Assembly (NCBI GenBank): GCA_017470985.1
Contig: JAFUXA010000020.1
Location: 1 to 49,578, forward strand
Reading direction: 5' to 3'
Source: Lachnospiraceae bacterium
Lineage (GTDB): Bacteria > Bacillota > Clostridia > Lachnospirales > Lachnospiraceae
DNA: 49,578 nt
Shown here: positions 6,626-45,552 of the stretch, piece by piece
Layout: every line of letters begins with the position of its first letter
How positions within the stretch are numbered: position 1 is the first letter of the stretch
Program-made: the position numbers and the translations under genes
Notes under the pieces: model-generated
The model's database searches: none
Told to the model about the DNA's origin: nothing
Seen by the model: the letters and a program-made list of their open reading frames with translations, nothing else

Positions 6626-7744
6626 ATGAGTGATGAATTAGATTTTTTAATTGAAAAGTACTTAAAGGAACGATATGAATTCAATGTTTTACGATTTGCA
6701 GAACTTGAAAAACTTCGACTTGATTTTATAAAAAAATATCCAGTAGCGAAGATTAGAAATATGAGCTTAGATGAGTACACACCGGTCACACAGGCTTCGT
6801 ATACTTTTAGTAGCAGGTTGCGCTGGGATTTGCAGCACTTGGGAACTATGGGTAATGCTTATCCGGATGTTTTTGGCATATATGAAAAAGACTCTCAGAT
6901 TAAGCTATCTAAGACATATGAAAATATATTTGGAAAGGATTATAGCTCTGCCTTTGAAAGAATTAAAGAAGATATTGTTGCAGTGCTTGAAGCTGCTGAT
7001 GCTGATGATTTTGAAGCAATAGAAAAAAGCAGACTAAACAGTCTTTTTAAGAACAAGCTCTTGATGGTGTATTACCCAGATAAGGTTATACCAGTATGTG
7101 TAAAGAATACCTTAGATGCTTATTGTGAAGCTGTCGGTTTTATTCCGCCAAAGAATATGCCTTTTATATTCAAAAATCGTGCTTTGAAAGAATACAAGGA
7201 TCAGAGCGAAACTTTTTCTGAGTGGTCTAATTCTCAGTTTATGGGCTTTTGCGATTGGATTTGGAGACAGAATAAAAAAGTAACTCTTAAAAAGGCAATT
7301 CCACAGCAAGATGCTGAAAAAGCAATAAAACTAGAAAAAGAAATAGAAGATTTACATGTAACGGGAGAAGACAAGGAAGCTGTTGTTAAGGTTAGAGTTA
7401 ATCAAGGTGTCTTTAGAGATAAACTCTTGCATAGATATCATAAATGTTGTTTATGCAATGTGAATCTTAATGGCTTGCTTGTGGCAAGTCATATTAAGCC
7501 ATGGGCAGTTAGTACACCAGAGGAACGATTAGATATCAATAATGGTTTTATTTTCTGTCCTACTCACGACAAGTTATTTGATAAGGGATATATTTCATTT
7601 GACGATAACGGTAAAATCTTGATTTCAGAGGAAATGGACCAGATTAATCAAACCTTTTGTAATATTAACAGCGATATGAGCATAGATGTTAATGATAAGC
7701 AAAAAGGTTACTTAGAATATCATAGAAAGATGTTTGGATATTAA
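6626..7744 (+). CDS. HNH endonuclease (HNH_2 type)
   Basis: 372 residues. The C-terminal domain (about 255-350) has the HNH_2 pattern: VRVNQGVFRDKLL, CCLC, ASHIKPW with the first catalytic His, then ERLDINNG and CPTHDKLFDKG. In other members such domains cut DNA with one divalent metal. The N-terminal 230 residues are helical and unrecognised, perhaps a sensor or specificity domain. The start follows AAAAGGAG. The stop codon TAA shares its last A with the start of the next gene, so the two proteins are probably made in fixed proportion. Confidence 0.85.
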   Translation: MSDELDFLIEKYLKERYEFNVLRFAELEKLRLDFIKKYPVAKIRNMSLDEYTPVTQASYTFSSRLRWDLQHLGTMGNAYPDVFGIYEKDSQIKLSKTYENIFGKDYSSAFERIKEDIVAVLEAADADDFEAIEKSRLNSLFKNKLLMVYYPDKVIPVCVKNTLDAYCEAVGFIPPKNMPFIFKNRALKEYKDQSETFSEWSNSQFMGFCDWIWRQNKKVTLKKAIPQQDAEKAIKLEKEIEDLHVTGEDKEAVVKVRVNQGVFRDKLLHRYHKCCLCNVNLNGLLVASHIKPWAVSTPEERLDINNGFIFCPTHDKLFDKGYISFDDNGKILISEEMDQINQTFCNINSDMSIDVNDKQKGYLEYHRKMFGY

Positions 7745-8160
7745 TGTATACATTAGAGCAGCAATTTAGATTTAAATATAGCGAGATAATGGAGTATTTT
7801 CAGTGCATTGAATATGACTTAAAACGCATTTATTCAGCTATGTCTGCGGATGATTTTGATGATAATATGGATATGCTTGAGTTTTCTAATATGGGAAAGA
7901 CATTAAGAGAACTTGAAGACATGGATAATAGTGATGGAGATCCATTTTTGTCTGAAGCGGATTATGATACTTTAGATGCGATTAGAGAACTACGAAATTA
8001 TTGGGCTCATCAATGCTACTTGGATTGGGTTTATTGCCATGATAATTGGGAACGCAATAGTAAATTACAGAGGGTTTATAATAGGCTTGTAAATGAAACA
8101 AATCGGGTGGCAAAGTTACAGAATAAACTTGAGAGATTTTACTTGGATACTTTTTGTTAA
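7744..8160 (+). CDS. HEPN-like protein coupled to the HNH nuclease
   Basis: 138 residues, mainly helical. Near residue 84 it has ELRNYWAHQ, an R-N-x3-H arrangement that fits the Rx4-6H active site of HEPN ribonucleases. ATG 7744 overlaps the HNH stop (TAATG), with no separate Shine-Dalgarno at the usual distance, which indicates translational coupling. A terminator follows directly. I infer an RNase or RNA-binding partner of the HNH protein. The whole-domain assignment is weak, because Rx4H alone can occur by chance. Confidence 0.72.
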   Translation: MYTLEQQFRFKYSEIMEYFQCIEYDLKRIYSAMSADDFDDNMDMLEFSNMGKTLRELEDMDNSDGDPFLSEADYDTLDAIRELRNYWAHQCYLDWVYCHDNWERNSKLQRVYNRLVNETNRVAKLQNKLERFYLDTFC

Positions 8161-8174
8161 GTGGAAATGGTTGT

Positions 8175-8203
8175 AAGCTGTCCGTATTTTGGGACAGCTT
8201 TTT
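8175..8203 (+). terminator. Terminator of the HNH/HEPN operon
   Basis: AAGCTGTCC (8175-8183) pairs with GGACAGCTT (8192-8200), followed by TTTT. Confidence 0.88.
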
Positions 8204-8278: not shown

Positions 8279-10213
8279 ATGAAAAAAGAAGATTTTATTG
8301 AGAATTTGAATAAGGCCAAGGATAAGTTGGTTGAAGCTAGTTCTGGGGTTGGAGTGGCTATTTCTGAAACTGGTAAAAATATTATGGAGAGCCAAACTGT
8401 AGAAAAAATAACCAAGGGCGCTAAAGAAGGAGCTGAAAAGATTTCTCAAGGAGCAAAAGCTGGTGCTGAGAAGGTTTCTCAGGGGGCTACAGCAGGTGCA
8501 GAAAAGGTGAAGGCCTCTGTTGAAGAATTGTCCGGAAATTCTTTCAAAGTTGATGGACATACTGTGCTTAGATTTAAGGGAATTAAAACAAAACTATTAA
8601 TTCCTGATTATTATGGAGTCGTAGAAGATAAAGAGATTATTACGACATTACAAGAGTCATTTGGAATTGAAAAAATTGAAACGGCATATATGTCCCAAAC
8701 ATCAAATTCCTTTAATATAGCGATGTTTTTTAGACCTAAAAAGGGCCGGAATATGGATTTTGGAAATCCGCAAGGAGTCATTGATGGTATTCATGAGAGC
8801 CTAGCTGATAATCAAGGATTAATCGAGGTAAAGAGTGGTAAGACGAAAAGAGGATACGATTATATATATAGTATTGTAAAATCCCTTCGAGAAGAAGATG
8901 GTTTACCAATGGGTGTTATCTACTTTGTAAGAATGGACATTGGTTTTGAAGGAAAGATTGTTGAGATTTATGCTAATTTTGAAGAGCAAGGGACAACAGG
9001 CTTGAGAGAAAGTATGGCTGCTTGCATGGCTTCTAATGCCGGTGTTTGTGAAATGGGAAGCGATAAGTGGGTTGAAGATCCATATGATTCAAATTACACC
9101 CATGGTGCGCGTAAGAATCTTGCTGAGAAAGAGGGACTGGATGGTTTCTTCCCGGAGAATCCACTTTCACAGGCGAGAGAATTTATTTTGGCAATTGTTA
9201 ATGATGAGCTTGTAACTTCTAGAAAAGATGATTCTGACGAAGAAACTGAGGAATTTGAAAACCTTTCAGAAGAAGAAAAACGTAAGCGTTCAAATGAGAC
9301 TTTGTCAAAAATGTTTGTCGATGAATGTCGAAGATATACTGAGACGATTGATATAGAACCTGATAATGATGATGAATCGGAGACAAAAAGAGAATCATTA
9401 AATGACCAGCTTGTACATGCTATTGATGAATACAATTATGTGTACACCCAGATGAGTGATAAAGGAACAAGCCTATACATTCAGCGTGAACGTTCTGTTG
9501 ATGTAATTAAAAATGTTGAAAATCTTGTTAACAGTATTGCTAACCATCCGAAGGAATTTGATGCATCAATTAGTGATATTGCAACTTTACGAGAAAACTT
9601 TAAAAATGCATGTGATTATGCAAAGCAAGAACTTGAAATGGCGCAGAAGTCAGCCATGAGTGTTGGCGCAGGAGCAGCGGGTGGAGCAGCTGTTGCGGCA
9701 ATAGCTCCTAGTGCGGCCATGTGGATAGCAACGACGTTTGGTACTGCATCTACGGGGACTGCAATATCAGCTTTGTCTGGAGCTGCAGCGACCAATGCTG
9801 CTTTGGCATGGTTAGGCGGTGGAGCAGCAGCAGCAGGTGGCGGTGGAATGGCTGCAGGCCATGCGCTATTAGCATTAGCTGGACCAGTTGGAATGGGAAT
9901 TGCTGGAGTTTCTTTACTTACTTCAATTGTATTATTTGCGAGCAAGAAAGCTAAGCTGGATAAGGAAAAGAAGGAAGAAATACAAGCAGTTCTTGCAAAC
10001 ACAGCTAGTCTAAAAGTGATTGATGAGAAGATAAAGTTATTATTAGATCAGACTGAACAGCTTAGAGAAAGCGCAAATTTGATGTATGGAAAATGCCTTA
10101 TCTCATTTGGGCGTGATTTTTTATCTTTAACAGATGAGGCTCAGACACAATTGGGAACACTTGTAAATGAGACAAAAACTTTAGCTGTACTTCTCGAAAA
10201 AGGAGTTGAATAA
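8279..10213 (+). CDS. Coiled-coil protein with Gly/Ala-rich membrane hairpin and N-terminal 11-residue repeats (unknown)
   Basis: 644 residues from ATG 8279, which has AGGAGGGG upstream; ATG 8249 has none. Residues 45-77 are three consecutive 11-residue repeats of the form SQGAKAGAEKV, an amphipathic pattern like that of synuclein or LEA proteins. Residues 85-290 form an alpha/beta domain. An acidic linker follows (about 320-360), then helices. Residues about 459-555 are very Gly/Ala-rich and hydrophobic, ending in a typical membrane helix, and are flanked by charged coiled coils. The layout recalls alpha-helical pore-forming proteins, but I recognise no family. It forms an operon with the next gene (2-bp gap). 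Confidence 0.9.
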   Translation: MKKEDFIENLNKAKDKLVEASSGVGVAISETGKNIMESQTVEKITKGAKEGAEKISQGAKAGAEKVSQGATAGAEKVKASVEELSGNSFKVDGHTVLRFKGIKTKLLIPDYYGVVEDKEIITTLQESFGIEKIETAYMSQTSNSFNIAMFFRPKKGRNMDFGNPQGVIDGIHESLADNQGLIEVKSGKTKRGYDYIYSIVKSLREEDGLPMGVIYFVRMDIGFEGKIVEIYANFEEQGTTGLRESMAACMASNAGVCEMGSDKWVEDPYDSNYTHGARKNLAEKEGLDGFFPENPLSQAREFILAIVNDELVTSRKDDSDEETEEFENLSEEEKRKRSNETLSKMFVDECRRYTETIDIEPDNDDESETKRESLNDQLVHAIDEYNYVYTQMSDKGTSLYIQRERSVDVIKNVENLVNSIANHPKEFDASISDIATLRENFKNACDYAKQELEMAQKSAMSVGAGAAGGAAVAAIAPSAAMWIATTFGTASTGTAISALSGAAATNAALAWLGGGAAAAGGGGMAAGHALLALAGPVGMGIAGVSLLTSIVLFASKKAKLDKEKKEEIQAVLANTASLKVIDEKIKLLLDQTEQLRESANLMYGKCLISFGRDFLSLTDEAQTQLGTLVNETKTLAVLLEKGVE

Positions 10214-10215
10214 AT

Positions 10216-11661
10216 ATGGATACGGAAGATATTGTAAAGAGCAATCAAGAACAGGCTGTTGCATCCTGGGTAAATTATTTAAATCAGGTCAGATTAGATC
10301 GACTTGTAGAATTCATGCAGAATCAGGATTTGAATTTGCATGATGCTATGGCTGATATTGATAATACTTTTTCTCAAATAGAAGAGCTTATAAATAGTAA
10401 TCGTGGTGGTACTTATGGATTGCATGGGTTTATTGCTGAAACGGCAGAAGTTGGCATTAGCAATGCTAGAGAAAATGTGCTGGGAAATCCCGATAAGTAT
10501 AAATGGTTAAATGATAATGGACCATCAGACTTGTTACGTAGTGGCGTTGAAATACAGCAAAAATTTTATCAATCGGATCTATCCTTGCGTGCTATTGCCG
10601 CTCATCTGGAAAAGTATCCGGATTATATAAGCAATGGTGGAAAGTATCAGATTCCAAGAGATCAGTATGATAAGATACAGGAACTTCTTTCGATATCAAA
10701 AGATGAAGCAAACAAGATGCCTACTGCGGATGGTTCATTTTCACTTAAACAGTGGAAGCTAGTTCATGAATTTTTTGACCATCAAAATATCAGCGTTAAT
10801 GATATAGAACCTTCAAAATTTCAATATAAAGAAGTTCAAAGAGAACAAATAAATATTACAATTAAGCAAGAAAAGGTCTCTATTAAGAAGACGGATTCCA
10901 ATCTCAGAAATCAAGCACGAAGGGAAGCCGCTCCGACATTGAAGGAAGGAGCTAAGGTTGTTGGAGTTGCTGCTGCTTTAGAGGGAGGTACATCATTAGT
11001 TCTTTCAATTGCTAAAAAGAAAAAAGAAGGAAAGTGCTTAAAAGATTTTTCTGATGATGATTGGAAGGATGTATTTAAAGATGCTGGTATAGGAACAGTC
11101 AAAGGTGGAGTTCGTGGCGCAAGTATTTATGTTCTTACAAACTATACCTCTACACCTGCATCAGCTGCAAATGCAATTGTTACAGCTTCGTTTGGAGTGG
11201 CAGAACAAGCGCATTTATATCGTAAAGGCGAATTAGATGAAGTTCAGTTTATTAGCAACGCTGAAATGCTTTGCTTAGATGCATCTGTTAGTGCATTATC
11301 GTCATTTATTGGTCAGGCTGTAATTCCAATTCCAGTAATTGGAGCATTGATTGGTAATACAGTTGGTACAACACTTTATAAGGTTGCAAAGGATGGACTG
11401 TCCGATAGAGAACAGAAAATTATCAAATTATATTTAGATGATATTGAGACATTGCGGTCAACATTGGATAAAGAATATCAAGATTTGGTTGCTAAGATTC
11501 AAAGAGAGTATGAATTATTTATGCAGATTCTTGAAAAGCTTTATTCAGTAGATTATATGAAAGCGCTTGAGGGTTCTTGTGAGATGGCAAAGCTTTGTGG
11601 TGTCCCATCAGAAGAGATTCTTGATTCAAAGGAAAAGATAGCGGATTTCTTTTTGAATTAA
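10216..11661 (+). CDS. Membrane-associated protein with possible PD-(D/E)xK-like N-domain (unknown)
   Basis: 481 residues. Around residues 70-150 there is a FIAE segment, then NGPSD (Asp105) and VEIQQKFY (Gln114-x-Lys116), and later IPRDQYDKI. The spaced E, D and QxK residues resemble the QxK variant of Mrr-like nucleases, but this is a motif reading only. Residues 246-266, 291-330 and 351-392 are Gly/Ala/Val-rich and hydrophobic. A coiled coil covers about 396-445. It starts 2 bp after the preceding gene, which also has a glycine-rich membrane region, so the two probably work together. Function unknown. Confidence 0.88.
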   Translation: MDTEDIVKSNQEQAVASWVNYLNQVRLDRLVEFMQNQDLNLHDAMADIDNTFSQIEELINSNRGGTYGLHGFIAETAEVGISNARENVLGNPDKYKWLNDNGPSDLLRSGVEIQQKFYQSDLSLRAIAAHLEKYPDYISNGGKYQIPRDQYDKIQELLSISKDEANKMPTADGSFSLKQWKLVHEFFDHQNISVNDIEPSKFQYKEVQREQINITIKQEKVSIKKTDSNLRNQARREAAPTLKEGAKVVGVAAALEGGTSLVLSIAKKKKEGKCLKDFSDDDWKDVFKDAGIGTVKGGVRGASIYVLTNYTSTPASAANAIVTASFGVAEQAHLYRKGELDEVQFISNAEMLCLDASVSALSSFIGQAVIPIPVIGALIGNTVGTTLYKVAKDGLSDREQKIIKLYLDDIETLRSTLDKEYQDLVAKIQREYELFMQILEKLYSVDYMKALEGSCEMAKLCGVPSEEILDSKEKIADFFLN

Positions 11662-27088: not shown

Positions 27089-27265
27089 ATGACAATTTTA
27101 GAGTTACGCCAAAAAACAGGACTTTCACAAGGCCAGTTTGCGAAGCGTTTCCATCTTAATGTACGAACAGTACAAACATGGGAACAAGGCACACGCAAAA
27201 CACCTGATTATGTAATCTGGTTAATAGCCAGAGTGATTGAATTAGAGGAAATGCTTAATGCTTAA
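27089..27265 (+). CDS. Short XRE regulator carried by the IS element
   Basis: 58 residues: MTILELRQKTGLSQGQFAKR, FHLNVRTVQTWEQGTRKTP, then a closing helix VIWLIARVIELEEML. This is a compact helix-turn-helix of the Cro/CI or MqsA-tail kind. AAGAGG lies 8 bp before ATG 27089. The gene overlaps the tnpB start by 8 bp, so tnpB translation is coupled to it. With the palindromic promoter upstream, it probably autoregulates the XRE-tnpB transcript. Confidence 0.85.
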   Translation: MTILELRQKTGLSQGQFAKRFHLNVRTVQTWEQGTRKTPDYVIWLIARVIELEEMLNA

Positions 27266-28361
27266 AGGTATGGAATTCAGAATCTATCCAAACAAAATAC
27301 AAGAAACCATTATTCAAAAAACATTTGGTTGTTCCAGAGTTGTATATAATTCTGGACTTGCTCTTCGTATAGAAGAATACAAGAATGGTAATTCTATTGG
27401 ATATAAAGAAACTAATTCCATGCTTACTTCCATGAAGAAAACTGAAGAGTATTCATGGCTTAAAGAAGTTGATTCTATAGCCTTACAGCAGTCTCTCAGA
27501 GATCTGGATAAAGCCTATAAGAACTTCTTTGCAAAAAGAGCATCATTTCCTAAATTCAAATCAAAACATAGCCACAACAAAAACTATCGCACACAGAATG
27601 TTGGTGGTAATATTTCAGTTGCAGGAAAATACATCAAACTTCCTAAACTTGGATATGTTAAATCCAAAATTTCAATGCCTGTTAATGGAAAAATTAATAA
27701 CGCTACCATTAAACAAACTCCAAGCGGTAAATATTTTTGTGTGCTTAATGTTGAAGTACCTGATGTATTCTATTCCAATGATGGTTGTATGGTAGGATTG
27801 GATGTTGGCATCAAGACTTTCTATACAGATAGTAATAATAACATCCTTACAAATCCTAAAAACCTTATCAAATCTGAAAAGAAACTCGCTAAAGAGCAGC
27901 GTAAACTTTCCAGAATGGTCAAAGGTTCATCTAATTGGAATAGACAGCGTATCAAAGTTGCAAGAATCCATGAGAAGATTACAAATCAGCGTAATGACTT
28001 TTTACATAAAGAATCTACAAAACTGGTGAAAGAAAACCAAATCATCTGCATTGAAGATTTAAATGTAAAAGGAATGGTTCGTAATCATAAACTTGCTAAA
28101 GCAATTAGTGATGTTTCGTGGTCTAAGTTCTTTGATATGCTTGAGTACAAATCTGCTTTCTATGGTACTGAGATAATCAAAGTTCCAAGATTCTATCCAA
28201 GCAGTCAGACTTGTGGATGCTGCGGATATAAGAATCTTAATATTAAAAATCTCAGCATTAGAGAATGGGAATGTCCTGTCTGTGGTACATACCATGATCG
28301 TGATGGTAATGCCGCTAAAAACATACTAAAAATGGGTCTGTCACTTCGCGTGACGGCTTAA
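27258..28361 (+). CDS. tnpB: TnpB, RNA-guided nuclease of the IS200/IS605 element
   Basis: 367 residues. RuvC-like residues are Asp182 (GLDVGIK), Glu266 (CIEDLNV) and the DRDGNAAKN segment (Asp347/Asp349). A zinc finger is formed by Cys319, Cys322, Cys339 and Cys342. The N-terminal MEFRIYPNKIQ opening is typical. TnpB uses an RNA from the element's 3' end to cut the donor-site DNA, which helps keep the element. All key residues are present, so it is probably active. Confidence 0.95.
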   Translation: MLKGMEFRIYPNKIQETIIQKTFGCSRVVYNSGLALRIEEYKNGNSIGYKETNSMLTSMKKTEEYSWLKEVDSIALQQSLRDLDKAYKNFFAKRASFPKFKSKHSHNKNYRTQNVGGNISVAGKYIKLPKLGYVKSKISMPVNGKINNATIKQTPSGKYFCVLNVEVPDVFYSNDGCMVGLDVGIKTFYTDSNNNILTNPKNLIKSEKKLAKEQRKLSRMVKGSSNWNRQRIKVARIHEKITNQRNDFLHKESTKLVKENQIICIEDLNVKGMVRNHKLAKAISDVSWSKFFDMLEYKSAFYGTEIIKVPRFYPSSQTCGCCGYKNLNIKNLSIREWECPVCGTYHDRDGNAAKNILKMGLSLRVTA

Positions 28362-28878: not shown

Positions 28879-29097
28879 ATGAAGATATTTGATGCAGCTG
28901 ATTTTGGAAAAGCCGTAAAAGCACGAAGAAAAGAACTTGGATATACTCAGAAATATTTGAGCGATTTTACAGGATATAGTACCAGCTTTATTTCGGAACT
29001 TGAAAATGGTAAGCCCACAATAGAACTAGAGCGAGCTTTGCGTATCGCTAATTTGTTGGGGTTAGATGTTTTGATGGAAGTGAGAGGTAAACATTGA
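28879..29097 (+). CDS. hipB: HipB-like antitoxin and repressor
   Basis: 72 residues from ATG 28879, after GAGGAG; ATG 28873 overlaps that site. XRE domain: FGKAVKARRKELGYTQKYLS, GYSTSFISELENGKPTIELE, ending in GLDVLMEVRG, which gives the beta-strand tail used by HipB for dimerisation. It should bind the four operators upstream and neutralise HipA. It overlaps the hipA start by 4 bp. Confidence 0.9.
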   Translation: MKIFDAADFGKAVKARRKELGYTQKYLSDFTGYSTSFISELENGKPTIELERALRIANLLGLDVLMEVRGKH

Positions 29098-30362
29098 GAG
29101 ATTTACGGATTTATATAGAAATATGTGGAAAACAAGAATTCGTCGGTCATATTATTGGAAATGATTATTCTGATGCTCAATTTTATTATGAAAGAGAATA
29201 TATGAATTCTGAATATGGGCACCCGATTTCGATATCACTTCCGTTTCAAGACGAAAAATTTTCTGTGCAGCAGACCAAAAACTTTTTTGAAGGCCTTCTT
29301 CCTGAAGGATTTTCCAGAAGAGCTGTAGCTAATTGGGCTAAGGTTGACGAAGATGATTACTTGTCTATTTTGTCTACACTTGGCAGAGAATGCCTAGGAG
29401 CAATAATGGTTGTGGAGGACGAAACTTCTGCTCATGAACATTATGAAAAGCTTGGAATTGATCGAGTGAAGGATTTGGCATCAGAAGGTGCAACCAGTTC
29501 CACTAAGATTTTGATGGAAACACATTTGTCGCTGACGGGAGCTTCTGGTAAGGTTGGTTTATATTATGATAAGGAAAATGATACTTGGTTTTTGCCGAAG
29601 GGGAATGCGCCAAGTACCCATATTGTGAAGCAAAGTCATGTGCGGTTAGATAGAATTGTATTAAATGAACAATTATGTATTTTAACAGCTAAAAATCTAG
29701 GCATTGAAGTTCCAGAGAGCTTTATTCTAAATTTAGGAGAAGGCGGAGATGAGGAGGTTCTCTATGCTACAGAAAGGTATGATAGAAAACTTTCAAATGA
29801 TAGAAAAATAGATGGAATGCCAGCTCCAATGAGATTACACCAAGAGGATTTTGCTCAAGCACTAGGGATAGCTTCTTCTGATAAATACGAGAAGGATGAA
29901 TCAGGTTATTTAAAACGAATGTTTGAATTGATTGCAATGTATTCTACTAATCCTCTTGAGGACCAAGTGAAACTTACGGAGCGAATAGTGTTTAATTATT
30001 TGATTGGAAATACTGATTGTCACATTAAGAATTATTCGTTGCTATATAGCGAGGACATGAAGGAGATATGCCTGGCTCCTGCATATGATATTGTCAGTAC
30101 TAGAGTATATAAAATGACTTCTGATATGTCATTTTATATTGGCGGAGAACTGGATATTGATAAAATAACCCGTAAGAATTTTGAAATAGCTGCTAATGAA
30201 ATTAAAATGAATCCTAAGATGGTAATGAATATTTTTGATAATACTGTTAATAAATTTGAAAAATCATTAAAAGAAGCGGCTGATGTACTGGTTAATATGG
30301 GATATACGGAAGCGAAAGACATTAGTGAAAAAATACTGATGATGACATATGATGGAATGTAA
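29094..30362 (+). CDS. hipA: HipA-type serine/threonine kinase toxin
   Basis: 422 residues from TTG 29094, overlapping the hipB stop (TTGA), with GAGAGG 6 bp upstream. The N-subdomain has the small beta domain (VGHIIGNDYSDAQFYYEREY). Kinase features are LTGASGKVGLYY and FLPKGNAPSTHIVKQ (ATP-binding region), NTDCHIKNYSLLY (catalytic loop HxxN) and APAYDIVSTR (metal-binding Asp). HipA of E. coli phosphorylates GltX and stops translation. Length is normal and no inactivating change is seen. Confidence 0.93.
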   Translation: MRDLRIYIEICGKQEFVGHIIGNDYSDAQFYYEREYMNSEYGHPISISLPFQDEKFSVQQTKNFFEGLLPEGFSRRAVANWAKVDEDDYLSILSTLGRECLGAIMVVEDETSAHEHYEKLGIDRVKDLASEGATSSTKILMETHLSLTGASGKVGLYYDKENDTWFLPKGNAPSTHIVKQSHVRLDRIVLNEQLCILTAKNLGIEVPESFILNLGEGGDEEVLYATERYDRKLSNDRKIDGMPAPMRLHQEDFAQALGIASSDKYEKDESGYLKRMFELIAMYSTNPLEDQVKLTERIVFNYLIGNTDCHIKNYSLLYSEDMKEICLAPAYDIVSTRVYKMTSDMSFYIGGELDIDKITRKNFEIAANEIKMNPKMVMNIFDNTVNKFEKSLKEAADVLVNMGYTEAKDISEKILMMTYDGM

Positions 30363-38480: not shown

Positions 38481-41400
38481 ATGAGTAGAATGATTAATGG
38501 ATTAAAAAAAAACAGCCAGTTTGTGTGTCGCAGTACTGATGGTAATTACTGCGCTTCCACAGCTGGCTGTAACTAGTTTCGCAGCAGAGGCGCCAGAAGG
38601 ATATACGACAGATTCTTATGGACTTATGGCGTGGCGTCAAAACAGTAATGATGGTTGGGGCGAAGGTTCAACCTTAAGCTATGATGTAAAGGGATATGTA
38701 AATGGTAGCTGGAAACAGGTTACTTTTAGTGATGGTGGTTTCCATTCAAAGGTATGGCCTCAGGAAGCACAGTCATCTATCCAGATTACATGTACACCAA
38801 GTTTTGTAGTAGAAGGGCAGGCTGTAATGTTTACATATAATGTAACCAATGCCAGTGCAGCACCTGTTTCTGATTTTAGATTTTTCCTTGCATCAGATAC
38901 CATGATTGATGGAGATGATGCAAGTAGCAATACGGTTGATGAAGATAATGTAATCACCATGAGTAATAATGGTACAGGAGTATCTTTATTTGCTTTTTCT
39001 ACTACAGAAGGAGGAATTGCGGTTCCAACAGAGTATGGTTCTGGAGAACATTCATATGGTAGTGCTATGAGAGGTGGCGATCCTTCCCTTACAGACAGAG
39101 TAGCAACTGCAGGAGATTCCGCTTTCGTTACATATTTTCCACTCACAACTTTAGCTCCTGGACAAAGCATTGAGTATACACTTGTAATTGGAATGGCAGA
39201 CAAGAGTGCAATTGCTGGAATTATTAATTCAGTAAAGAAGGCATTATTGAAGACGGGGCTTGATTATGAAAATGAGTGTCTGAAGGATTTGACACCGGGG
39301 GGAACATACATCTTAAAAGACAGAGATAACGGAGCAGTTGAGTATGAAGTAAAAGCTGGAGAGGATGGAACTATTCCTCTTACAGGAACAGATGTAAATG
39401 GTAATGCATATGATTTCATTGGCAAGACAATTACTATTTATCAAAAAGGTGAAGGAGATGTAGCTGATTCAGATCCTATGGATGTAGAAGTAGCAGGTAG
39501 ACCTGATGCTGAAGAGCCATCAGTTACATATACACCGGAAAATGTTAATTCAAATGATATCCATACTACTAATAATACTATTCAGGTCAAGGCAGTTGCC
39601 GGACAGGAATATAGATTAAATGATGGGCAGTGGGTTTCACCTGGAGCAGATGGTACAGTTACATTTGGCGGATTAGATGAACTTACATCTTACACAATTT
39701 ATACCAGAGTGAAGGCTACAAGAGATGCTCCAGCATCAGTTACATCTGATGGTGTTGAGGTAAGAACATATGGTATGTTTGATCCTGTAACTGATGGATA
39801 TGATGATGACTATGATGGAAGTGCACATGTGGCAAGAGTTAACACAACTGTTGCAGATGCCAAAATTACATACGCACTTAATCCTGATGGACCATATAGA
39901 GAAGAGGAATATCAGTTTACAGAACCAGGTACATATACAGTTTATTACAAGATTGAGAAAGAAAATTACTATGATGCAATTGGTTCTATTGTAATAAATA
40001 TTGAGAAGAAAGATTTAGCACCAGAAGAGCAGGCTAGAATTGAGGGCGTGCGAGCATACACTTCAAGAATCGTGGTATCAGATGTGGAGCCAAAGTCTGA
40101 TGATGTATTATATGCAGTTAGCAGAAGCCCATATCCTCCAACAGATGAGGACGCATGGCAGACATCCAATGTATTTGACGAGCTTCAGGCAGATAGCACA
40201 TACTTTGTATTTGCCAAGATTCCTGAGACAGATCATTATAACGAGAGCATAAGTGAACCATTCAGAGTTACAACTGCTGAGGAAGTGGATGAAAAGGATT
40301 TGAAAGTCTCAAGCAAGGTTCCTGAGGTTGTAGTGGATAATGATACTACAGGAATCCAGATTGGCGGACAGATTAATGCTCTGGACAAGGTTGACGAGGT
40401 TGTATTGCAGTATCGTAAGGTTGGTAGCGATACATGGACTACAATTCCTATGTATACTGCAACTGATGTGGAAGAAGATTTCAGCTGTTTCCTTGGAGTA
40501 GGCGGCAAGGGATTAGATTATGATACAACTTATGAGTATCAGTACATTGTGAAGACCAGCGTAACTGGTGAGACACAGGAAGTGCCAAGTGACATTTTCC
40601 GATTCCAGACACCAAAGAAGCCAGAGGAGCAGAAGAAGGATGTAACTGGAGATGTGGTAACAGAGATTACCAACAGCACAACCAGCAATAGAACATATAC
40701 TGTATCAATTGAGAAAGGTAATACAGTTCTTCAGTCCAAGACAGTTGATATTGCAGCTGGTGAGACTGTTGTGGTAAGAGATTTCGAGGGCGTGGCTCCT
40801 GGAACATACAATGTAGTTATCAGAGACAGAGATGGTGGATATGTAGAGACAAGAACCATTGATGTACAGGCTAATAAGAGCAGTAAGGTATCTACAACTA
40901 CAGTAGCTGGTCCTGTTAAATCTAGAGTCAATATTGTAGATGCCAAGACAGCTGATGTTGCGGTAAATGGACTTCATGATATTATTACAGCAGCAGAGAT
41001 TGCAGAAGCTGCGACAGGTTCCAAGGGTGTAGAGATTACTCTTGATGTAGAAGACAAGACAGATGAATCTAATATAAACGGACAGAAGGACATTGAGGTG
41101 GTTCTTAAGTCTGTAAATGATTCACCAAATACTTCAGTGCCAAAGGAAGTAAAGAAGATCCTTGATTTGTCACTTTACAAGACAAGCACACAATATGATA
41201 CTAATGGAAATGCAGTTGCTCCTGGTGAGAAGACTAACATCGGTAGTCAGAATAGCGTAGTACTTGAAATTGCTATTCCATTAGATGAGGAATACAAGAA
41301 TATAGGTATCATTAGACATCATGAGGGTGAAGCTACAATGCTTATTCCTCTGTCTACAAGACCAACTGATAATTATGTAGATGGAACATTCTATGTAGGA

Positions 41401-41742
41401 GATGGATACATATATGTATACTCTAACAAGTTCTCTACATATGCAATCGTAGCAGATGATGAGAAGGCAACACCTAAGCCTGCAACTAATACAGATGATA
41501 CAGATACAACTGAGACTACAGAGGTAACTGGCAATACCGGATCAGGTATCATGGGAGTTACATATGATACTGTAGTTCCTGGATATGTATTCCAGCAGCA
41601 GGTTACATACATTGGTCGTAGAGTTACTCCTCCTAAGACAGGACAGGCTCAATCTGGTTCGTCAAATTCTGGAAGTAATGGTATAATTGCTATAGACATG
41701 TGGCTTTCAGAAGAAGAGGACGATGAGGAGTATGAAGAATAA
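38481..41742 (+). CDS. Large secreted surface protein, sortase B substrate; +1 frameshift in A9 tract
   Basis: ATG 38481 (GGGG upstream) starts MSRMINGLKK, then the run of nine A at 38504-38512 puts the rest out of frame. With eight A the product continues TASLCVAVLMVITALPQLAV, a perfect signal peptide, and ends at 41742, about 1086 residues. It has a beta-rich N-domain, several Ig/FN3/MBG-like modules (for example YDGSAHVARVN), and a Thr-rich C-region. A PPKTG sorting-like motif is encoded at 41629-41643, followed by 32 residues with an acidic tail. The sortase gene overlaps its end. Confidence 0.85.
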
Positions 41743-42779: not shown

Positions 42780-44123
42780 ATGGGAAAACAAAATAATCCA
42801 GACAAGAAAGTTGGATTCGGTAAGCTGGTATTGTGGAACACCAGTGCAGTGTCAGTAGCGGTGGCTACTTTGTTAATGGGGTTTGTAACAATTTTCTGTA
42901 CAGACACTTTGGGGTTGGAACCGTTCATAGTAGGTGCAGTATTTGCAGCAAGCAAGGTTCTTGATAGTGTAACAGATTTGATGGCTGGTTTTATTATTGA
43001 CCGGACCAAAACTAAATGGGGCAAAGGACGTCCTTATGAAGTATTTATGCTTATTTTGTGGGTATGTACATGGCTGTTGTTCTCGGTGCCAGAAAACATG
43101 TCTACTATATTGAAATATGTATGGGTATTCTTTATGTACATATTAATGAATGCCATATGCGTTACATTTCTTAATGCTAATAATGTGGTATATATGGTTC
43201 GTGCATTTAAGACCAGAGAACAGCAGACAAGAGTTGTATCATATGGCGCATTCTTTACTATGGGCGCCGGACTTATATTTAATGTGGCATTCCCTATAGC
43301 TATGGCCAAGATGGCTACCACTCCAGCAGGATGGAGCAGATTGATAGGTATGATTGCCATTCCCATGACTGCAATAGGTATACTTAGAATGCTATTTATC
43401 AAGGAAGAATATAATTCTGAGGCGGATGTAGATACTAATAAGCTGTCATTGTCAGATGTTGTAACTCTGGTCAAGACAAATAAAGGTTTTATATCTATTA
43501 CTATTGTTAAACTCTTACAAAATATGGCAGGTGGAATTGGAGCTGGCGTATATTATTTTACATGGATTATAGGAAATGTTGGTTTAATGGGCGTTATGGC
43601 AATTACTTCAGTAATTGGCCTGCCATTAGCATTTCTGATGCCTGCTGTGCGCGAGAAAATGGGAATGAAGAAAATGAGCATCTATGGATTTGTTATAGCA
43701 TTAGCTGGCTATATTATGATGTTCTTCGCCAAAGACAATCTGATTATGGTTGTTGTTGCAGGTCTTATTTCATCTATTGCAGTAGTACCATTTACAATGT
43801 TATTCAATATGTTCATTGTAGATTGCGCTGACTATAATGAGATGATTGGTAAACCGAGAATGGAAGCTACAATAGGAAGTATTACAGGTTTGGGAAGTAA
43901 ACTTGGAGGCGCAATTGGTGGAATGATTATGGGGTTATTACTTAGTCTTGTACATTATGATGGTACCGCTTTGATGCAGCCTGACAGTGTGATTATGATG
44001 ATAAGAATCGGTTCCAGTGTTGTACCAGCAATAATCTTTCTGGCTATGATTCTAGTAATGAGAACTTATAAACTGGATGACATTTTGAAGAGTTGGAGGG
44101 CTGAAAATGCTGAAAGGAATTAA
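42780..44123 (+). CDS. GPH-family sugar:cation symporter (MFS)
   Basis: 447 residues with about 12 membrane helices. GPH signatures are KVLDSVTDLMAGFIIDRTKT in loop 2-3 followed by KWGKGRPYEVF, and FIVDCADYNEMIGKPRMEAT near the C-terminal third. These transporters import glycosides, pentosides or hexuronides with Na+ or H+. The gene overlaps the GH43 gene by 17 bp, so the likely cargo is a xylo- or arabino-oligosaccharide. TACGAGGAGG gives a strong ribosome binding site. Confidence 0.93.
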   Translation: MGKQNNPDKKVGFGKLVLWNTSAVSVAVATLLMGFVTIFCTDTLGLEPFIVGAVFAASKVLDSVTDLMAGFIIDRTKTKWGKGRPYEVFMLILWVCTWLLFSVPENMSTILKYVWVFFMYILMNAICVTFLNANNVVYMVRAFKTREQQTRVVSYGAFFTMGAGLIFNVAFPIAMAKMATTPAGWSRLIGMIAIPMTAIGILRMLFIKEEYNSEADVDTNKLSLSDVVTLVKTNKGFISITIVKLLQNMAGGIGAGVYYFTWIIGNVGLMGVMAITSVIGLPLAFLMPAVREKMGMKKMSIYGFVIALAGYIMMFFAKDNLIMVVVAGLISSIAVVPFTMLFNMFIVDCADYNEMIGKPRMEATIGSITGLGSKLGGAIGGMIMGLLLSLVHYDGTALMQPDSVIMMIRIGSSVVPAIIFLAMILVMRTYKLDDILKSWRAENAERN

Positions 44124-45552
44124 TCCATATTTACCTTGGTATGAATATGTGCCGGACGGTGAGCCTCATGTATTTGGCGACAGAGTATATGTCTATGGAA
44201 GCCATGACCGCTTTATGGGATATGCCTTTTGTCAAAATGATTATGTGTGCTACTCGGCTCCAGTGGATGATTTGACAGATTGGCAGTATGAAGGTGTGAT
44301 ATATACAAGAACTGAGGCTCCAAGGAATGAAGATGGTGCTCATTGTCTGTATGCTCCGGATGTAACTCAAGGACCAGATGGCAGATATTACTTATATTAT
44401 GCTTTGGATGGAATCCCTATAATTTCCGTTGCAGTATGCGATACGCCGGCTGGGAAATATCAATACTATGGAGATGTATGTCATGCTGATGGCACAATAC
44501 TGGGATTAAAAGAAGGTGATGATTTTCAATTTGATCCAGGTGTATATACAGAGGGTGATGTTACATGGCTATATAGCGGATTCTGCCCGCCGATGATGAC
44601 TGATAGACTTGGAGCGCAGGCTATTGCCTTGGATAAAGATATGATTACAATTATTCGCGAGCCGAAAATTATAGTTCCTAGTTCTATTCAGGCGAAAGGC
44701 ACAAGCTTTGAAGGACATGGTTTTTTTGAAGCAAGTAGTATGAGACAGGTTAATGGAAAATACTATTTCATTTATTCATCCGAATTGAGTCATGAATTGT
44801 GCTATGCCGTTTCGGACAGACCGGATGAAGGATTTGTATATGGCGGGACAATTATCGATAATGGAGATTTGGGAATTGTTGATACGCCGAGATATTTTGT
44901 GGGTAATAATCATGGAAGTATAGAGCGTATAAATGGTAGATGGTATATTTTCTATCATAGACATACCAACGCCAGCATGTATTCCAGACAGGGCATGATT
45001 GAGCCTATTGTCATAGATTCAGCTGGTAATATTTCACAAGTTGAGATGACTTCTACCGGGCCAAGTGGCGGTGCCATACAGGCTCAGAATATAATCCCTG
45101 CATATTGTGCCTGCAATTTATATATTACTCGTCCGCCTATGGTGGACGGGGCAGCAGGCCATAATCCCTTTCCGTATATTACGCAGGATGTGGCTGATGT
45201 GGATGCTGAAGAATTATCTCAGAATGCCGATGCATCTGGATTGAAGCAGCTAGATAATGATGCAAGGGCATATATTAGAAATATTACACCAGGAGTTGTT
45301 GTGGGATTTAAATATCTGGATTTTCAAAATGTGACAAAGCTTAGAATCAAAACCAGAGGCATGTGCTATGGTGGCAAGTTTGATATTATGATAGACAGGG
45401 ATGATAATGTGGTTGACAGCATAGATGTAGCTGGTGGAAACGAATGGACCACCAGCGAAGCATCTGTGCAAATTCCGGACGGTGTTCATAGTCTTTACTT
45501 TAAAATGGATGGTTATGGTACATTATCCTTCTTGGATTTTGAATTCTGTTAG
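44107..45552 (+). CDS. Glycoside hydrolase family 43 (xylosidase/arabinofuranosidase)
   Basis: 481 residues without a signal peptide, so intracellular. The five-bladed propeller of GH43 is recognised from NPYLPWYEYVPDGEPHVFGD (general base Asp region), CLYAPDVTQGPDGRYYLYYA (pKa-modulating Asp), and HGFFEASSMRQVNGKYYFIY (acid Glu). A C-terminal CBM6-like beta domain starts near residue 370. It splits xylosyl or arabinosyl units from oligosaccharides taken up by the overlapping symporter gene. The exact bond is not deducible. Confidence 0.92.
   Translation: MLKGINPYLPWYEYVPDGEPHVFGDRVYVYGSHDRFMGYAFCQNDYVCYSAPVDDLTDWQYEGVIYTRTEAPRNEDGAHCLYAPDVTQGPDGRYYLYYALDGIPIISVAVCDTPAGKYQYYGDVCHADGTILGLKEGDDFQFDPGVYTEGDVTWLYSGFCPPMMTDRLGAQAIALDKDMITIIREPKIIVPSSIQAKGTSFEGHGFFEASSMRQVNGKYYFIYSSELSHELCYAVSDRPDEGFVYGGTIIDNGDLGIVDTPRYFVGNNHGSIERINGRWYIFYHRHTNASMYSRQGMIEPIVIDSAGNISQVEMTSTGPSGGAIQAQNIIPAYCACNLYITRPPMVDGAAGHNPFPYITQDVADVDAEELSQNADASGLKQLDNDARAYIRNITPGVVVGFKYLDFQNVTKLRIKTRGMCYGGKFDIMIDRDDNVVDSIDVAGGNEWTTSEASVQIPDGVHSLYFKMDGYGTLSFLDFEFC

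What the first reader, a model, noticed from the sequence alone, without database searches (positions are those of the whole stretch)
8279..11661. Undescribed two-gene unit: synuclein-like 11-mers plus membrane hairpin, paired with a nuclease-like membrane protein
Two long genes separated by 2 bp, neither of a family I know, lie inside a defence island. Seen: the first has three 11-residue amphipathic repeats (residues 45-77), coiled coils and an about 95-residue Gly/Ala-rich hydrophobic block. The second has three further hydrophobic blocks and a spaced E/D105/Q114-x-K116 pattern like Mrr-type QxK nucleases. Inference: a membrane-acting or pore-forming effector with a DNA-sensing or DNA-cutting partner, possibly abortive phage defence.
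Basis: partly seen in the sequence, partly recalled or inferred. Interest (0 to 1): 0.8.

Follow-up and report, generated by a model that had tools for sequence, protein, structure and literature searches.

The report
Membrane-tethered nuclease pair, likely anti-phage
Two neighbouring bacterial genes, already on a public list of suspected anti-virus systems but with no known mechanism, look like a DNA-cutting protein held in the cell membrane together with a partner, so they may cut virus DNA as it enters the cell.

Summary
In detail: genes A (8279-10213) and B (10216-11661), 2 bp apart, in a defence island. The pair is not undescribed: it matches PADLOC's candidate PDC-M09A/B. Pairing is conserved: 88 of 92 loci with a strong B hit have an A core within 800 bp. 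B's E75, D105, Q114 and K116 are invariant in 59 of 59 B sequences. Its model orders alpha-beta-beta-beta-alpha-beta, as PD-(D/E)xK nucleases do, then a helical module and coiled coil. A sister protein carries a GmrSD-type HNH domain on the same C-terminal module. A has four long helices and a highly conserved Gly/Ala block; its N-terminus varies between amphipathic helix (here true 11-mers), transmembrane helix and nothing, and here also holds a PsbP/Mog1-like domain. Against: no profile match to Mrr_cat, no significant fold hit for B, no experiment. Best reading: a membrane-tethered nuclease acting on incoming phage DNA, like SNIPE in logic but not in domains. Main rival: abortive pore formation with a DNA-sensing partner.

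The parts
8175..8200 (+). terminator-like hairpin between the pair and the genes before it
   Evidence: 9 pairs, 5 G-C, T tail; 2 such sites found in the region against 2.0 expected in shuffles, so a consensus match only
8279..10213 (+). gene A, 644 aa; residues 343-644 match PDC-M09A
   Evidence: E 2.5e-118
8402..8509 (+). A residues 42-77: three 11-residue amphipathic repeats, proposed membrane-binding helix
   Evidence: model helix 40-85
8537..9205 (+). A residues 87-309: PsbP/Mog1/DcrB-like fold; in the fetched loci seen only in the window, L013, L031 and L044
9398..10198 (+). A residues 374-640: four long helices, the shared core of A
9662..9946 (+). A residues 462-556: Gly/Ala-rich hydrophobic head; its part 462-540 is the most conserved stretch of A; fold not predicted (pLDDT below 50 for 499-554)
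10216..11661 (+). gene B, 481 aa, matches PDC-M09B over its length
   Evidence: E 7e-209
10402..10695 (+). B residues 63-160: nuclease-like core (HGxIAE with E75; D105; Q114-x-K116)
10939..11394 (+). B residues 242-393: helical, Gly-rich module (hydropathy high only at 245-267 and 351-388) with the GQxxIPIPVxGAxIG segment; weak resemblance to TIM17/22/23-type chains
11404..11541 (+). B residues 397-442: long C-terminal helix, read as coiled coil

Best explanation
The pair is a membrane-held nuclease system of the PADLOC candidate type PDC-M09. B is a PD-(D/E)xK-like DNA nuclease of the QxK kind, fixed to the inner membrane by its Gly-rich helical module and coiled coil. A, a coiled-coil protein with a large Gly/Ala block and an exchangeable N-terminal tether (here an amphipathic 11-mer helix plus a PsbP-like domain), forms the membrane complex with B. 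Holding the nuclease at the membrane keeps it off the chromosome and puts it where phage DNA enters, so that incoming DNA is cut early. Shown here: conserved pairing, invariant catalytic-type residues, predicted order of the core, different nuclease domains on one C-terminal module, exchangeable N-termini of A. Inferred: membrane location, complex formation, DNA cutting, action at entry, defence.
For: A core (40 bits or more) within 800 bp of B in 88 of 92 loci found through B; A and B diverge together (Mantel rho 0.845, 51 loci, 0 of 999 permutations). E75, D105, Q114, K116 invariant in 59 of 59. Model: helix 65-88 (E75), strands 95-97, 106-108, 111-115 (Q114), helix 120-133, strand 143-146. 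The core aligns with a QMK subfamily of 4 sequences (hhalign E 6e-9) and one IQTK protein (E 4.9e-6), motif on motif; these are E-values of single comparisons. The C-terminal module recurs behind an unrelated nuclease: L140 matches the module profile at E 2.1e-25 and carries GmrSD_C, an HNH restriction domain (E 8.9e-8, 32.6 bits, cut-off 23). N-terminus of A: transmembrane helix in 6 As (L015, L021, L028, L037, L040, L079), amphipathic helix in many, under 45 residues before the core in 34 of 88. A DUF697-type gene follows B in 12 of 34 short-A loci and 0 of 53 long-A loci. Defence island in the window; WYL regulators directly before A in L054 and L065. Precedent: SNIPE, a membrane-bound nuclease with a variable N-terminal adapter, toxic when its membrane segment is removed (PMC13190303: abstract and sections 5, 9, 10 read).
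Against: No significant profile match of the core to Mrr_cat (hhalign E 0.24, probability 0.3%). When all 59 B members were scanned against Pfam at E <= 10, no PD-(D/E)xK family is among the 25 of 92 families shown. No membrane-topology program was run, and helices 280-336 of B are not strongly hydrophobic. A's block is far more conserved than an anchor needs. The tether/DUF697 contrast is not made of independent events, and some loci end too soon after B to judge. Enrichment of defence genes around relatives was not clearly shown: 116 PADLOC families in 144 neighbour genes against 42 in 108 control genes, with one protein often hitting many families. No experiment exists.
Confidence: 0.5

Rival explanations
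1. Abortive infection by a pore: A is a ClyA-like bundle whose Gly/Ala head inserts and permeabilises the inner membrane, and B binds or cuts phage DNA as the trigger.
Confidence: 0.27
2. The pair acts against plasmids or other incoming DNA in general, or as an entry-exclusion function of the plasmids that carry it, not mainly against phages.
For: 60 plasmid records carry B (46 Klebsiella); 30 of the 60 are typed conjugative.
Against: B is also found in many genomes of gut Clostridia and Actinomycetota, mostly on contigs not titled plasmid; the window copy sits among phage-defence genes.
Confidence: 0.12
3. A membrane-stress or envelope function unrelated to invading DNA; the QxK pattern is structural.
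For: Neighbours in some relatives are ter, TerB and dynamin genes; the core has no significant match to a known nuclease family.
Against: Patchy distribution: 3 of 145 relatives and 6 of 398 phylum genomes, own genome included, 3 of the 6 being only distant sisters; GmrSD_C on the same module in a sister protein.
Confidence: 0.08

Closest known systems
PADLOC candidate PDC-M09 (PDC-M09A / PDC-M09B)
   Same: Both genes match the models strongly, in order and adjacent.
   Different: The M09A models cover only residues 343-644 of A; the window A has an N-terminal extension of about 340 residues with 11-mers and a PsbP-like domain, seen in 3 relatives. PADLOC gives no description, and the full-text search found 0 papers naming PDC-M09.
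SNIPE (PD-lambda-1)
   Same: Logic: nuclease at the inner membrane, with variable N-terminal membrane adapters (PMC13190303, sections 5 and 9 read).
   Different: SNIPE is one protein with DUF4041 and GIY-YIG; neither domain was found in A or B. Here two proteins, a QxK core and a multi-helix module.
Kiwa (KwaA/KwaB) and Zorya
   Same: Several proteins at the membrane acting on injected DNA (PMC12904381, passages read).
   Different: No PADLOC Kiwa or Zorya model hit A or B.
GmrSD_C-type HNH domain on the same C-terminal module (L140)
   Same: Shares B's C-terminal module.
   Different: N-terminal nuclease is HNH, not QxK; the 200 residues printed of the next gene's product show no M09A-type head (by eye).
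PsbP/Mog1/DcrB/EagT6-like proteins
   Same: Fold of A residues 87-309.
   Different: Identity to the PsbP chains listed is 16% or less; here the domain lies between an amphipathic helix and the M09A core.

Membership tests
PADLOC PDC-M09 | PDC-M09A and PDC-M09B homologues adjacent | tested here: met
   E 2.5e-118 and 7e-209, genes 2 bp apart
PD-(D/E)xK nuclease superfamily | catalytic-type E / D / (D,E,Q)xK residues conserved | tested here: met
   E75, D105, Q114, K116 invariant in 59 of 59
PD-(D/E)xK nuclease superfamily | alpha-beta-beta-beta-alpha-beta core fold | tested here: inconclusive
   the order of elements in the model agrees, but no PDB chain was matched at E <= 0.001; the core was not folded alone
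PD-(D/E)xK, Mrr_cat family (PF04471) | profile similarity to Mrr_cat | tested here: not met
   hhalign against 23 Mrr_cat sequences: E 0.24, probability 0.3%; no Mrr_cat hit for B
PD-(D/E)xK nuclease superfamily | metal-dependent DNA cleavage | not testable with these tools
   needs purified protein
SNIPE | DUF4041 plus GIY-YIG domains | tested here: not met
   Pfam scan of A and B at E <= 1 shows neither
Kiwa / Zorya | KwaAB or ZorAB homologues | tested here: not met
   no such PADLOC hit to A or B at E <= 0.01
ClyA-type alpha-pore-forming proteins | helical bundle with hydrophobic head, fold match | tested here: inconclusive
TIM17/22/23 fold | four-helix membrane fold, residues 240-372 of B | tested here: inconclusive
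PsbP/Mog1-like fold (A 87-309) | fold match | tested here: met

The most novel reading that the evidence does not exclude
PDC-M09 is one branch of a modular class of two- or three-gene membrane nuclease machines. A constant C-terminal membrane module, whose IPIPV motif recurs in proteins that look by eye like phage tape measure proteins, presents an exchangeable nuclease (QxK, QMK or HNH types) to DNA. A Gly/Ala-headed coiled-coil partner with exchangeable tethers (amphipathic helix, transmembrane helix, or a separate DUF697 protein) binds the phage's DNA-entry channel, so that self and non-self are told apart by place, not by sequence.
Probability: 0.3. Interest if true: 0.85.

Novelty: new variant of a known kind. 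Interest (0 to 1): 0.62.

Why it matters
PDC-M09 is a candidate in a public defence catalogue with no mechanism attached. The evidence turns it into a testable one: a membrane-held nuclease with named catalytic residues. If true, telling phage from host DNA by place would be a wider strategy than SNIPE alone, built by putting different nucleases on one membrane module, with members in Bacillota and Actinomycetota and on Klebsiella and Lactococcus plasmids.

Tried and rejected
Leads that failed or stayed weak. Pfam, NCBIfam, PHROGs and PDB sequence searches gave no clear relative of A or B. The A5 profile gave a tandem RNase A at E 2.7e-4; I reject it, as single-copy RNase A scores 0.1 or worse and the model has a PsbP-like fold. 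CENP-R, Ins_allergen_rp and HTH_38 hits to B lie below their cut-offs. DUF3482 hits 12 of 59 B members (best E 3e-4), read as a similar Gly-rich membrane segment. The BFVD fold search of B gave nothing significant (best E 0.22, several tape measure proteins). A core in phages: no match. Weak B hits in viral contigs (L099-L117): those that I read share mainly the GQxxIPIPVxGA segment, L099 the whole C-terminal module; some look like tape measure proteins by eye, not tested. Standalone copies of A's PsbP-like domain: none in 150 and 299 genomes beyond the window's own, none in viral contigs. Toxin-antitoxin reading rejected: no small partner gene. Secreted polymorphic toxin not favoured: no export part seen by eye (no signal-peptide program was run). 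In one search a motif search left some loci without A; the A profile replaced it. The 4 misses are L073, L077 (B starts 386 bases into the contig), L082 and L083; A in L035, L038 and L080 counts as present on weak or partial hits. In L133 the partner beside B looks frame-broken and was not counted as a head-bearing partner. 'HNH-like' for L005, L006 and L099 rests on resemblance by eye to L140; only L140 passed a Pfam cut-off. The tether labels were assigned by me; 4 of 59 rows were left unlabelled, and the tree is of the quick kind.

Full report
Observation. Genes A (8279-10213, 644 aa) and B (10216-11661, 481 aa) are on the + strand, 2 bp apart, each with a ribosome-binding-like sequence before it. 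A terminator-like hairpin at 8175-8200 lies before A. Around them are an AspBHI-like methyl-directed enzyme, a Sau3AI-type enzyme with a methyltransferase, Uzume UzuA and an HNH protein with PD-T4-1 similarity, and further off AbiEi/AbiEii and a type IV enzyme. The 11-mers and Gly/Ala block of A and the E/D/QxK pattern of B are real.

Identity. PADLOC-DB names the pair PDC-M09A and PDC-M09B, so it is a listed candidate. Later papers call PDC systems unpublished (PMC11811056, passages) or unvalidated for the most part (PMC12988326, passages). A full-text search for PDC-M09 gives 0 papers. One recent discovery paper (PMC13092281, passages) does not contain 'PDC'.

Distribution. Of 398 phylum genomes 6 have a match, 3 of them only distant sisters; of 145 relatives 3; both counts include the window's own genome. 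B is in 60 plasmid records (Klebsiella 46, Lactococcus 5, Leptolyngbya 4, others 5), 1 phage record and 159 stretches of the genome collection, of which the best 80 were kept. Of 92 loci with a B score of at least 300 bits (window copies left out), 88 have an A core of at least 40 bits within 800 bp on the same strand. A and B identities correlate at rho 0.845 over 51 loci.

Swapped nucleases. A profile of B's C-terminal module (A6, which includes five distant sisters) hits 10 of 398 phylum genomes. Sisters carry other N-terminal parts: GFSAE..QMK (L122, L132, L133, L137), QAKSS (L135, L138) and HNH: L140 matches GmrSD_C at E 8.9e-8. Next to three QMK sisters (L122, L132, L137) and L135 lie proteins with A's head motif (by eye; L122's partner scores 107 bits with the A profile). 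That unlike nuclease types sit on one C-terminal module is the best indirect evidence that B cuts nucleic acid there.

Protein A. Its core (residues 374-640) has four long helices; the Gly/Ala block lies between the second and third, and residues 499-554 are unmodelled. The N-terminal extension of the window A recurs only in L013 (Butyrivibrio), L031 and L044 among the ORFs of 117 loci. Residues 87-309 have the PsbP/Mog1 fold; its neighbours include DcrB and the EagT6/SciW chaperones. From memory and from the entry titles, the latter bind membrane helices of type VI effectors, which would fit a role in handling the head; this is a guess. Of 88 As, 34 have under 45 residues before the core; 6 have a clear transmembrane helix there; many have an amphipathic helix. 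In the quick B tree all 36 rows that I labelled as extended lie in one supported group of 38 rows. A third gene follows B in 13 loci; two members match DUF697 (E 3.5e-8 and 2e-13). It is present in 12 of 34 short-A and 0 of 53 long-A loci, probably few or even one evolutionary exchange. I read this as one membrane adapter replacing another.

Mechanism. A kept nuclease, a kept membrane part and shifting adapters are the pattern of SNIPE, whose N-terminal region varies between transmembrane, DivIVA-like and pleckstrin-like forms and which cuts phage DNA during injection (PMC13190303: abstract and sections 5, 9, 10 read). A review names Zorya, Kiwa and SNIPE as DNA-targeting systems with membrane proteins (PMC12904381, passages). 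M09 shares no Pfam domain with SNIPE. A search for membrane-anchored, -tethered, -bound or -associated nucleases listed 20 of 46 papers; among those listed only SNIPE and this review concern phage defence. I put the tethered-nuclease reading at 0.5 and pore-based abortive infection at 0.27.

Weak points. No experiment; no direct match to a characterised nuclease; membrane insertion rests on hydropathy and composition; the conserved head of A is not explained by simple tethering; the test for defence genes around relatives is inconclusive, since PADLOC families are redundant (116 families in 144 neighbour genes, 42 in 108 control genes, 25 shown each).

Noticed in passing
window 8537-9205 (A residues 87-309); L013, L031, L044: PsbP/Mog1-like domain fused into a defence-candidate protein; no standalone copy found in the genomes searched.
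   Followed up: partly
L058, L064, L065, L067, L069, L070, L072, L073, L074, L075, L076, L078, L088: A gene of about 175 aa (DUF697 by Pfam in the two tested) follows B in 13 loci, only where A lacks an N-terminal extension (L073 has no A detected).
   Followed up: partly
L010 5825-7852 and 11295-13481 (Lactococcus pSD96_06); L123 2113-3738: Two dynamin-type GTPase genes, both with an N-terminal helix-turn-helix, flank the pair; a dynamin-type gene also lies upstream of a distant B sister.
   Followed up: no
L120 3287-3691, L121 8643-9047, L122 6990-7424, L137 3060-3458; L011: TerB-like genes sit next to distant B sisters (Pfam TerB for L120 and L122, the others by eye), and the Klebsiella pKP187 pair lies beside ter genes.
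   Followed up: no
L095 3471-5993: Directly after an A-B pair on a viral-collection contig lies an 840-aa protein with further hydrophobic stretches and its own HGFAAE...IQTK core.
   Followed up: partly
window 7744-8160: 138-aa protein upstream with RNYWAH, which resembles an HEPN RNase motif (motif recalled; weak Pfam HEPN_Swt1 hit, E 0.08), starting at the last base of the HNH/PD-T4-1-like gene.
   Followed up: no
window 27258-28361: IS605 OrfB / TnpB-type gene in the same window (Pfam).
   Followed up: no
window 29094-30362: HipA-type kinase gene (Pfam).
   Followed up: no
window 38521-41742, 42780-44123, 44107-45552: Three long ORFs (1073, 447 and 481 aa) without a PADLOC hit at E <= 0.001; not scanned against Pfam.
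   Followed up: no
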